Source: Thermoplasmatota archaeon
GTDB lineage: Archaea; Thermoplasmatota; Penumbrarchaeia; Penumbrarchaeales; Penumbrarchaeaceae
Direction: 5' to 3'
Assembly (NCBI GenBank): GCA_029762535.1
Contig: JARVGK010000006.1
Coordinates: 1-64,000, forward strand
Length of the DNA stretch: 64,000 nt
A program made the translations under genes and the position numbers. The notes under the pieces were generated by a model. The model made no database searches and had not been told where the DNA came from. It was given only the letters and a program-made list of their open reading frames with translations. Within the stretch, counting starts at the first letter, position 1, and each line of letters begins with the position of its first letter. This document shows, piece after piece, positions 52,510 through 55,956 of this stretch.

Positions 52510-53664
52510 ATGAAGAACTTGAACGATGCTGAGAGAACGGCCCTGTTCGGTCTCGTGACATTTCCCGATCTCAACGACATGGACCTCTCACAACGTTTCT
52601 CAATGAAGTATTCCACATTCGCCTCGGCCAAGAGTCGCGTGATCGCAAAGGGATTCGTCGATGAGTACTATCTGCCCGTATTCCCTAGGCTTGGCTTCGA
52701 GCTATTGGCGACCGTATATACGGATTTCAACCCTGCTGTGACTGTGGAGGAACGCGTCAAGAACACGATAAAGCATGTAGAGGTCTATCCCGAGATGGTT
52801 TTTTCCCTCGGAGAGTCACACAGGGGTTTCTCGATATCGATCGCTGAGAACGTCACCCGCGTCATGAGGATATCACTCGAGAGGATCAAGTTGTTCGCTG
52901 AGCTGAACCTTCTGGAGATCGAGCTTCCCACGGAGATAATGCTTCCGTTCGAACTCTCGAACATTCATAGGTACTTCAACCTCTCACCACTGATCAATCT
53001 TACTTACTCCACCACGGGCAAGAGCGGGTCGGAGCTTTCCAAGGAATTCTCCATCCCCCGAAGCGATCTTCTTTTTGGGGATTCGATTATGCAGGTCAAT
53101 CCTAAAAACGAAAGATCGCAAGAGGACGATCTCTCCAGGGTGGAAAAGGAGCTGATGTACTATATAGTGAAGTACCCTCAACTATCGGCGGCAAAGCTCG
53201 CGAACATCGCCCCCTATTCTAGGCATACGATATCAAAGGTGAGGGAGGACATGCTGTATCGGGGTCTTCTAACCAAGCAGGTCATTCCGAACCTCAATGT
53301 ACTAGGATATTCCATACTCTCCCTGTTCCATGCCCGGATCGATCCAAGCAAACCCATAGATCCATCGACATGCAACCGGAGAGAGATCCTCCAGGATGAG
53401 ACCGTGTTCCTTGTCAGTAGGCCGACCGAGCTTTTGATGCTCGCCGTTTACGAGGATTACGTACATTACAACAAAGGCATGGGTGCTTTCATCCAGTTCC
53501 TCAAGTCAGGGAACTACATAACCAAGATCCCGACGATAAGGAACCACTCCCTCAAAGAGGCGATCATGATCAAGAGGTTCCAGTACCATGAGCTCCTGAG
53601 ACAGAGGTTCTCGCTCAATATCAAAGATGGTCGAGATACCAATATCGATGATCATCTCTCGTGA
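52510..53664 (+). CDS. Duplicated winged-helix transcription regulator
   Basis: A protein of 384 residues made of two similar halves. Each begins with a helix-turn-helix (about 5-50: DLSQRFSMKYSTFASAKSRV; about 215-260: SAAKLANIAPYSRHTISKVREDM) and continues with a matching stretch (FPRLGFELLATVYTDFNP and IPNLNVLGYSILSLFHARIDP), which looks like the start of an Lrp-like ligand domain. It is divergent from the citrate operon across a short AT-rich gap, so it is a likely regulator of it. The family is not one I can name. The effector could be citrate or a related acid, by inference only. Confidence 0.7.
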   Translation: MKNLNDAERTALFGLVTFPDLNDMDLSQRFSMKYSTFASAKSRVIAKGFVDEYYLPVFPRLGFELLATVYTDFNPAVTVEERVKNTIKHVEVYPEMVFSLGESHRGFSISIAENVTRVMRISLERIKLFAELNLLEIELPTEIMLPFELSNIHRYFNLSPLINLTYSTTGKSGSELSKEFSIPRSDLLFGDSIMQVNPKNERSQEDDLSRVEKELMYYIVKYPQLSAAKLANIAPYSRHTISKVREDMLYRGLLTKQVIPNLNVLGYSILSLFHARIDPSKPIDPSTCNRREILQDETVFLVSRPTELLMLAVYEDYVHYNKGMGAFIQFLKSGNYITKIPTIRNHSLKEAIMIKRFQYHELLRQRFSLNIKDGRDTNIDDHLS

Positions 53665-53708
53665 TCATCAAACACTCTTAACAGATATCATTTGGTATTA
53701 AAATCACA

Positions 53709-53884
53709 GCAGAGTTTGGCATATTGATTTACATACCTCTGCCCAACGGTGACGTGAATTTGACGCTCCGTTGGGCTTAGAACATGCCAATGTAATTGGC
53801 AGGTTAGGTGAAATAACATCAGTTATTTTACGACTATTTCGAAGTCCCGTATCATATCGATCTTGACGCAAGGGACTTACGAAA
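53709..53884. ncRNA. Candidate structured RNA: chain of perfect hairpins
   Basis: Between the regulator and the exonuclease genes, at least five exact inverted repeats follow each other: GCAGAG 53709-53714 with CTCTGC 53737-53742; GCCCAACGG 53741-53749 with CCGTTGGGC 53768-53776; TGCCAAT 53785-53791 with ATTGGCA 53795-53801; AAATAAC 53811-53817 with GTTATTT 53822-53828; and TTTCGAAGTCCC 53837-53848 with GGGACTTACGAAA 53872-53884 (12 pairs, one bulged A). No gene fits this stretch. A TATTAAAA element lies at 53696-53703. The strand is not fixed because stems read in both directions. A decayed hairpin-ended mobile element is an alternative. Confidence 0.45.
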
Positions 53885-53935
53885 AAACCCGATTTTCATT
53901 ATTTGTTGTGAGCCTCTGGCTCATGAGGGTTTTTT
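53882..53935. terminator. Bidirectional terminator next to exonuclease III
   Basis: AAAAAACCC (53882-53890) pairs with GGGTTTTTT (53927-53935), giving a nine-base stem that ends in a U-run on either strand. It encloses an inner hairpin, TGAGCC (53909-53914) and GGCTCA (53918-53923). It directly abuts the stop of xthA and can serve both the leftward gene and any rightward transcript. Confidence 0.65.
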
Positions 53936-53936
53936 A

Positions 53937-54752
53937 TCAAACATCGAGCTCGATCCCGACCGGGCAATGATCGGAACCCGTTACTTCTTTTAATATGAAC
54001 GCGTCATTCAACTTTGGCAGCAACACCTCATCTAAGAAGAAATAATCTATCCTCCAGCCGATGTCGCGCTCTCTGGCCCTGGTCTTGTAATCCCACCAGG
54101 AATATGATACCTCTTCGGGATGCGTATGCCTGAAGGAATCAAAAAAACCCGAACCTATGACCTTGTCTATCCACTTCCTCTCGATGGGGAGGAATCCGGA
54201 TATCTTTTCGTTCTCCTTCGGCCTGGCCAGATCGATCTCGTTATGGGCAGTGTTCACATCGCCGCAGAACACCACTGCCCTACTCTTCCTGTATTCCAAT
54301 ATCCTCTCCAGGAAAGCCTCGTAGAAATCCAACTTGAACCTCAATCTCTCATCGCCCTGTTTACCATTGGGGAAGTATGCATTGAAGAGTATGAATTTCT
54401 CGTGATGGGAGATCACAAGCCTTCCCTCCCGATCTAAACTCTCGATCCCCAATCCGTATTCCACCTCTAAGGGTTCGTCCCTGGACCATGTGCTGACGCC
54501 TGAATATCCCTTCTTTTCTGCGGATGTAAAATACTTTTCAAAACCTTCAAAGTCAAGTATCACCGGGTCCAGCTGCTCAGGACGGGCCTTGGTCTCTTGT
54601 ATGCAGAATATGTCCGGTCCGTCCTCTTTGATGAATTCGAGCATGCCCTTGGATGCCGCGGACCTGATCCCGTTGACGTTCCACGATAAGAGCCTGATCG
54701 GATCACCTCTTCTTGCGGGCCTTGATCTCGACGCTCGGGCTGAGATCGACAA
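53937..54752 (-). CDS. xthA: Exodeoxyribonuclease III / AP endonuclease
   Basis: An endonuclease/exonuclease/phosphatase-fold enzyme. The protein proper starts near IRLLSWNVNGIRSA and shows CIQETK, FNAYFPNG, FCGDVNTAHNEIDLARP, YSWWDYKTRARERDIGWRIDYFF and TGSDHCPVGIEL; these give the metal and catalytic Glu, Asp, Asn and His residues. It cuts DNA at abasic sites. The start is unclear: TTG 54750-54752 gives 271 residues with an Arg/Ser-rich extension, while ATC near 54700 follows directly on a GAGGTGATC site and the upstream stop. The gene overlaps the end of the LeuD-Sua5 fusion gene, so it is translationally coupled. Confidence 0.88.
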   Translation of the reverse strand: MSISARASRSRPARRGDPIRLLSWNVNGIRSAASKGMLEFIKEDGPDIFCIQETKARPEQLDPVILDFEGFEKYFTSAEKKGYSGVSTWSRDEPLEVEYGLGIESLDREGRLVISHHEKFILFNAYFPNGKQGDERLRFKLDFYEAFLERILEYRKSRAVVFCGDVNTAHNEIDLARPKENEKISGFLPIERKWIDKVIGSGFFDSFRHTHPEEVSYSWWDYKTRARERDIGWRIDYFFLDEVLLPKLNDAFILKEVTGSDHCPVGIELDV

Positions 54753-55956
54753 CGCTCTGACCCCTTACCAGGTCGTCGGGTATGGGCTTCTCCTTCTCGG
54801 ATACGAGATCTGGAAAGAGGGTGTTCAATTTCTTTGTTTCGAAGGGGCCCGAACGTAACAGCTTCGGAGGGTCCGTGCTCATATCGAGCACCGTATGGCC
54901 TATGCCGTAATGGGTAGGCCCTCCATCAACGGCTATTGTCACGGTTTCCCCCAGTTGCTTGAGCGCCTCCTGCATTGTAGAGGGTGGAGGCTGCCCATGG
55001 ATGTTCGCAGAAGTGCCACATATCTCTATCCTCTCCATCACCGCTTTCATGAAGATGTTCTCACCGTCGGCTAGAGAGACGGTCTTCAGATTGGATGTAA
55101 CATAGTCGGGCACCCGTTCCTTCTTCTTTATGAATATAATGGATATCGGCCCGTCCAATTCGTTCTCCAGCAATGCCATGGTTCTGTCATCGATCTTCGC
55201 GTAATCCGTGAAACGGCTTCTCGGGACTATCATGGTCAGAGGCATGTCCTCTCCGCGTTTCTTCATCGCGTAGATCCTCTTGATGGCCTCCGGACGTTTT
55301 ATTGAGGCGAAAAGCCCATAGGTTGTATCGAAGGGACCTAAAAGGACCTCCCCTCGATTCAACATCTCGACCACGGTATCGACATATTTTTCCTTTGCCG
55401 GAAATATCTTCACCTTTTCAACCTCCTTCATTCTATCATTGTCCTTGAAAGGTCTGCTCATCTCCGATATACCGCCCTTCTCTATAAGAAGGGGAAATAG
55501 TCCGCCTTTTTCGATAATATCCATTATGAAACCTTGAAGCGGGGGCAGCGGCGAATCCCAACCCTTGGTGATATTATGTAACCTGTTATCCTCTATCAGG
55601 ACGCTGTCACCGTCAGAGCAAGCATCGGGAAGGTCGGGGTCCTCGTAAAGCGGTATGCCGAGATTTATCAGGTTCCTCTTCATTATAGGGGCTATTGACT
55701 TGGCAATGACCGCTTTTATTCCCAGGAACCTCATGGCGTTTGAGGCATGCTCTCTTGAGGACCCCTTGCCGAAGTCCTCACCGGCGACGATCACATCGCC
55801 TTCTCTGACCCCGGAGGCGAACCCAGGATAATCCTGCTCAAGGCAATGAAGGGAATAATCCTCCTGTGGAAGATGCAGATACCTCGTAGGGGCCAGCGCA
55901 TCGGTATCGATATTATCCCCCAAAAGCCATATCCTTCCCTTTGCGATCTGTTTCAA
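54703..55956 (-). CDS. Fusion of LeuD-type isomerase small subunit and Sua5/YrdC domain
   Basis: A protein of 417 residues with two unrelated parts. Residues 1 to about 160 are a LeuD-type swivel subunit: GDNIDTDALAPTRYL, GEDFGKGSSREHASNAMRFLG and NLINLGIPLYE. The specificity loop reads YLHL, so isopropylmalate and homoaconitate cannot be told apart. Residues about 181-390 are a Sua5/YrdC domain: LLGPFDTTYGL, YAMKKRGEDMPL and TSANIHGQ, the fold that makes threonylcarbamoyl-AMP for tRNA t6A. The join lies near nt 55430 with no stop or frame change. LeuC overlaps by four bases upstream. Fusion of these two functions is unusual. Confidence 0.85.
   Translation of the reverse strand: MKQIAKGRIWLLGDNIDTDALAPTRYLHLPQEDYSLHCLEQDYPGFASGVREGDVIVAGEDFGKGSSREHASNAMRFLGIKAVIAKSIAPIMKRNLINLGIPLYEDPDLPDACSDGDSVLIEDNRLHNITKGWDSPLPPLQGFIMDIIEKGGLFPLLIEKGGISEMSRPFKDNDRMKEVEKVKIFPAKEKYVDTVVEMLNRGEVLLGPFDTTYGLFASIKRPEAIKRIYAMKKRGEDMPLTMIVPRSRFTDYAKIDDRTMALLENELDGPISIIFIKKKERVPDYVTSNLKTVSLADGENIFMKAVMERIEICGTSANIHGQPPPSTMQEALKQLGETVTIAVDGGPTHYGIGHTVLDMSTDPPKLLRSGPFETKKLNTLFPDLVSEKEKPIPDDLVRGQSVVDLSPSVEIKARKKR

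What the first reader, a model, noticed from the sequence alone, without database searches (positions are those of the whole stretch)
53709..53884. Chain of at least five exact hairpins with no gene: candidate structured RNA
The gap between two convergent genes is filled by consecutive perfect inverted repeats of 6, 9, 7, 7 and 12 pairs (last with one bulge). Such density is not expected by chance in about 175 bases. The first two stems share two bases (53741-53742), so they may be alternative pairings. TTGGCA at 53716-53721 could also pair with TGCCAA at 53785-53790, another alternative. It could be a new noncoding RNA, a riboswitch-like element or a remnant of a hairpin-ended mobile element such as IS200/IS605.
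Basis: seen in the sequence. Interest (0 to 1): 0.78.

Follow-up and report, generated by a model that had tools for sequence, protein, structure and literature searches.

The report
Mobile hairpin element in Thermoplasmatota archaea
The hairpin chain is one copy of a small gene-less DNA element, about 245 bases long, that occurs in many copies and only in one family of Thermoplasmatota archaea; its hairpins are held in shape by matching base changes, it is present or absent at exact positions between related species, and nothing that could move it has been found.

Summary
It is one of four 84-89% identical, differently flanked copies in its own genome, plus about nine shorter or diverged ones. 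A covariance model finds it in 8/8 genomes of its family, up to 52 hits in one, but in 0/2 of the sister family and essentially nowhere else in 293 genomes of the phylum. 83 aligned hits give strong covariation: 35/36 pairs change on both sides; 565 two-sided cells against 170 in shuffles. G.U exceeds A.C 72:28, so the + strand folds. Two clean filled/empty pairs between congeneric species show it comes and goes as a unit. In G009, units sit in tandem and nested inside one another. No Rfam match; no Y1 transposase in any relative, which weighs against IS200/IS605 and REP/RAYT. Best reading: a new non-autonomous mobile element with a selected single-strand (probably RNA) structure, settling at gene 3' ends. 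Mobiliser and transcription are unknown.

The parts
53691..53935 (+). whole element, type A copy (six hairpins), left end TTTGGTATT, right end GGGTTTTTT
   Evidence: ends shared by four copies with unrelated flanks; model R1 hit 53735-53935, E = 2.6e-25
53694..53737 (+). P1 hairpin GGTATTAAAATCA/TGATTTACATACC
   Evidence: inverted repeat; own arms pair better than in all 34 swaps over 35 units
53738..53780 (+). P2 hairpin, core GCCCAACGG (53741-53749)/CCGTTGGGC (53768-53776), loop motif TTGACG at 53760-53765
   Evidence: (covarying helices 1-3)
53781..53805 (+). P2a hairpin AACATGCCAAT/ATTGGCAGGTT, extra hairpin of type A
   Evidence: almost invariant among the four type A copies, so no covariation test
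53808..53831 (+). P2b hairpin GTGAAATAAC/GTTATTTTAC, extra hairpin of type A
   Evidence: almost invariant among type A copies
53837..53884 (+). P3 hairpin TTTCGAAGTCCC (53837-53848)/GGGACTT-A-CGAAA (53872-53884, bulged A at 53879), loop motif TTGAC-GCAA at 53863-53871
   Evidence: (helix 4, 11 of 12 pairs covary)
53885..53935 (+). P4: AAACCC/GGGTTT closing stem (A- and T-tract up to 9 bp) with inner hairpin TGAGCC (53909-53914)/GGCTCA (53918-53923); terminator-like
   Evidence: helices 5-6
53647..53669 (+). hairpin GATGATCAT/GTGATCATC over the stop codon of the upstream gene; flank, not part of the element
52510..53664 (+). upstream gene, regulator-like, TrmB match below the Pfam cut-off; not part of the element
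53937..54752 (-). downstream convergent gene, Exo_endo_phos family; no element behind it in four relatives; not part of the element

Best explanation
The feature is a copy of a non-autonomous, non-coding mobile element found so far only in one family of Thermoplasmatota. Its unit is three hairpins, P1-P2-P3, in many copies closed by a terminator-like P4; this copy carries two extra hairpins. Shown by computation: the hairpins of the + strand are kept by compensatory change; copies are dispersed with sharp ends and are present or absent at orthologous sites; units also sit inside one another. Inferred: the fold is recognised as a single strand, more likely RNA than DNA, by an unknown trans-acting protein through the two similar loops (AUUGACGNRA in P3, AUUGACG in P2); that partner places the element near gene 3' ends, often just after a hairpin and T-run; P4 then ends transcription there.
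For: Four 84-89% copies with unrelated flanks and identical ends. Model R1 hits in 8/8 genomes of the family, 0/2 of the sister family. Covariation: 35 of 36 pairs, 565 two-sided cells against 170.5 shuffled, score 0.449 against at most 0.095 for slid partners. G.U 72 against A.C 28. P1 pairs better than all swaps. Empty sites: L021 of G004 against G003, L016 of G004 against G003 and G005. Nested units in G009. Stems conserved against loops among copies of one genome.
Against: No mobilising enzyme is known: no Y1 transposase, reverse transcriptase in only two genomes, no recurring transposase next to copies. No target duplication or terminal inverted repeats seen. Presence/absence between species could be precise loss in one case (L021). 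The hairpin-upstream rule is only a trend (11 of 35 against 3 of 35 with z < -2, but p = 0.18 over all sites). No transcript data. The 83-hit alignment was fitted to the model, which inflates pairing to some degree.
Confidence: 0.65

Rival explanations
1. A family of functional noncoding RNAs (own genes or mRNA 3' ends) that spread by duplication; movement is incidental and every copy works in the cell.
For: Strong covariation and + strand bias; uneven divergence among copies, P3 stem 0% against P3 loop 52% variable; terminator-like 3' end.
Against: Copy number varies from 2 to 52 per genome, sites are not conserved between species, no shared promoter-like sequence upstream (by eye), neighbours without theme.
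Confidence: 0.2
2. A DNA-level hairpin repeat of the REP or IS200/IS605 kind, recognised as single-stranded DNA by a Y1 transposase.
For: Intergenic, hairpin-based, many copies, one strand folded; GACG is the complement of the CGTC tag of one REP superfamily.
Against: No Y1_Tnp in any of the eight genomes; hairpins are larger, the motif lies in a loop and not at the end, and the paper lists bacterial phyla only for CGTC repeats.
Confidence: 0.06
3. A stand-alone bridge-RNA-like guide of an IS110 element: 5' hairpin plus two hairpins with internal loops, moved by an IS110 transposase in trans.
For: Order and size of P1-P2-P3 recall a bridge RNA (from memory); one IS110 gene lies beside a tail copy in the own genome.
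Against: Loops show no guide-like match to target or joined ends in two copies, save one 9-mer in L021; loop motifs are conserved where guides should vary; IS110 was not searched genome-wide.
Confidence: 0.05
4. Only bidirectional terminators between convergent genes, the rest being chance.
For: P4 is terminator-like and abuts the stop codon of the downstream gene.
Against: The other hairpins are shared with distant copies, and P1, P2 and P3 covary.
Confidence: 0.03

Closest known systems
Short intergenic mobile repeats of prokaryotes (REP/BIME, ERIC, MITEs)
   Same: Short, non-coding, intergenic, many copies, hairpin-forming, mostly downstream of genes.
   Different: Several distinct hairpins with covarying stems instead of one palindrome or terminal inverted repeats; no Y1 transposase; units nest inside each other.
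Large structured noncoding RNAs of unknown function, some tied to mobile elements (such as HEARO or OLE, from memory)
   Same: Elaborate conserved fold, terminator-like end, spotty distribution.
   Different: No Rfam match even permissively; dispersed with sharp ends and empty sites; no partner gene beside copies.
IS110 bridge RNA (from memory)
   Same: A 5' hairpin followed by two hairpins with loops, about 150 bases.
   Different: No guide-like complementarity to target or ends; no transposase gene in the element.
Group IIC introns (from memory)
   Same: Often inserted just after terminator hairpins; bulged A near the base of the last hairpin.
   Different: No Rfam hit for intron domains; element of 190-250 bases; no reverse transcriptase in most genomes that hold it.

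Membership tests
IS200/IS605 and REP/RAYT | Y1 transposase in the genome to act on the hairpins | tested here: not met
   0 of 10 genomes of the order match PF01797, 5 of 14 controls do; genomes are incomplete
CGTC-tagged REP | 20-40 bp palindrome, 8-9 bp stem, CGTC tag at one end | tested here: not met
   element is 190-250 bases; GACG lies inside loops
MITE | short, non-coding, dispersed copies with sharp ends | tested here: met
MITE | terminal inverted repeats and target duplication | tested here: not met
   no inverted repeat joins 53691 and 53935 (arms up to 80 bases apart; ends compared by eye); no duplication evident at two empty sites
Known Rfam RNA family | match at the gathering score | tested here: not met
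   window and 12 loci, none
Structured noncoding RNA | covarying secondary structure | tested here: met
   + strand by G.U over A.C
Structured noncoding RNA | transcript | not testable with these tools
   no RNA-seq at hand
IS110 bridge RNA | loops complementary to target and element ends | tested here: not met
   15 of 16 comparisons at chance, one 9-mer in L021
Integron attC | RYYYAAC/GTTRRRY boxes | tested here: inconclusive
   P2 of this copy, GCCCAAC/GTTGGGC, fits, but other copies have GCACAAC/GTTGTGC; read by eye
Group II intron or retroelement | reverse transcriptase in the host genome | tested here: not met
   RVT_1 only in G003 and G006, not in G009 or the own genome; genomes are incomplete

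The most novel reading that the evidence does not exclude
A mobile element that is itself a structured RNA: it is selected for its fold, targets the 3' ends of transcripts, grows by inserting into its own loops and bulges without breaking the fold, and is moved by an unknown enzyme of a kind not linked to such elements before.
Probability: 0.2. Interest if true: 0.85.

Novelty: new variant of a known kind. Interest (0 to 1): 0.6.

Why it matters
Mobile repeats with a covarying multi-hairpin fold but without inverted ends or an evident enzyme are unusual, and I found none described in these archaea. The filled/empty pairs and the nested arrays make the mechanism testable, and the two similar UUGACG loops point to a protein partner that could be fished out.

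Tried and rejected
Relatives through the neighbouring regulator protein: none in genome contigs. Viral contigs by three patterns: none. Y1 transposase, reverse transcriptase, bridge RNA, attC and CGTC-REP ideas tested as listed. Recurring transposase next to copies: none among 89 neighbour proteins, top 25 families shown. A re-pairing of P1 with the P4 strand (ATTTTCATAC repeats the 3' arm of P1) was seen but not counted. P1 covariation on 15 copies alone was weak (78 of 2000 shuffles as good) and became clear only with the G009 units. A fixed upstream hairpin as target rule is a trend only. Papers: six searches found no description of this element; four returned no paper at all.

Full report
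What is there. Bases 53691-53935 form a chain of six hairpins between the 3' ends of two convergent genes: a regulator-like gene (52510-53664, only a sub-threshold TrmB match) and an exonuclease III-type gene (53937-54752, complement). As RNA the element folds at -82 kcal/mol, z = -6.2, with none of 200 shuffles as stable.

It is a repeat family. In its own genome three more copies match over the whole length at 84-89%, with unrelated flanks and the same sharp ends, TTTGGTA (or close variants) at the left and GGGTTTTTT at the right; two copies of a shorter type B lack the two middle hairpins; others are tails or diverged copies. BLAST and then a covariance model (R1) find it in all eight genomes of the family and in neither of the two of the sister family. 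Over 293 genomes of the phylum only one weak outside hit appears, E = 0.04. Named records with a match are Thermoplasmatota MAGs. Viral contigs gave nothing.

The structure is real. On 13 spliced copies P2 already covaries and P3 is nearly invariant. On 83 hits, 82 distinct, 90.0% of cells pair against 66.7% in shuffles, 35 of 36 pairs show changes on both sides, and the covariation score is 0.449 against at most 0.095 for slid partners. In P3 one pair is G-C in 29, C-G in 18 and A-U in 17 copies. In P2 and P3, G.U pairs outnumber A.C mismatches 72 to 28, so the + strand is the folded one; this fits RNA and also single-stranded DNA. The alignment was fitted to the model, so these figures lean towards it; the slid control and the many pair types make an artefact unlikely. 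P1 holds too: over 35 units own arms pair better than in all 34 swaps. Two loop motifs recur: AUUGAC followed by GNRA on the 3' side of the P3 loop, and AUUGACG in P2.

It moves, or at least comes and goes as a unit. In G004 copy L021 sits between a tRNA and the 3' end of a lysyl-tRNA synthetase gene (class I by Pfam tRNA-synt_1f); in G003 the same flanks, 81-92% identical, meet with about ten bases instead of some 194. Copy L016 in G004 follows a hairpin that G003 and G005 share without the element; two empty species against one filled favour insertion. The exonuclease gene of the window has no element behind it in four relatives. No target duplication or terminal inverted repeat is evident.

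Nesting. G009 has 52 hits, many in tandem. Units there also lie inside others: in the loop of P1 (L080, L083), after the GACGAGA of P3 (L018, L085), in the 3' strand of P2 (L082, L085), and in the P3 loop (L018, L025). The insertion points fall in loops or at bulges, so the host fold can survive. This was read by eye from sequences and folds, not by a formal count.

Context. Neighbours are ordinary genes without a common theme or a recurring transposase. In G009 the upstream gene mostly points towards the element and often ends in a GC-rich hairpin with T-run. As a general rule this is only a trend: upstream z < -2 in 11 of 35 sites, downstream in 3 of 35, whole distributions p = 0.18. Two genera carry different element types behind the same conserved hairpin (L023, L082).

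Selection. Among the four type A copies the P3 5' stem has no variable column, the middle hairpins 7%, the P3 loop 52% and P4 42%; core against rest p = 1e-5. Neutral decay after insertion would be even, so copies are either young offspring of a selected source or useful in place; the data do not separate these.

What it is not. No Rfam family at the gathering score in the window or in 12 loci; a permissive scan of 53600-54000 gave only four chance-level matches. No Y1 transposase in the order, so IS200/IS605 and REP/RAYT do not fit. Reverse transcriptases only in two of the eight. CGTC-tagged REPs share a tetranucleotide but not the anatomy. Loops do not match target or joined ends as a bridge RNA should, save one 9-mer.

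Verdict. A new, family-restricted, non-autonomous mobile element with a selected single-strand fold. Shown: fold, covariation, dispersal, presence/absence. Inferred: RNA as the acting form, a protein that reads the two loops, preference for gene 3' ends, terminator role of P4. Unknown: mobiliser, transcription, benefit to the cell.

Noticed in passing
window 54703-55956 (-): One gene joins an aconitase/LeuD-type C-terminal domain to a Sua5/YrdC domain; the same fusion is kept in G005 (Pfam) and by tblastn along the whole protein in G003 and G009.
   Followed up: partly
L007 (own genome, C22): An IS110 transposase gene lies about 200 bases from a tail-only copy of the element; it may have inserted into that copy.
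   Followed up: no
L023 near 1271-1345 and the matching place in L082: A conserved stretch with a long hairpin (GGGTTAG...CTARCCC) precedes different element types in two genera; it may be another noncoding RNA.
   Followed up: partly
L016, L140, L141: The hairpin GGGTCC...GGACCC just before the L016 element is conserved in three species and has no Rfam match.
   Followed up: partly
window 53890-53908: The P4 strand ATTTTCAT...GTTGTG resembles the 3' arms of P1 and P2, so P1 and P2 might re-pair with P4; not counted.
   Followed up: no
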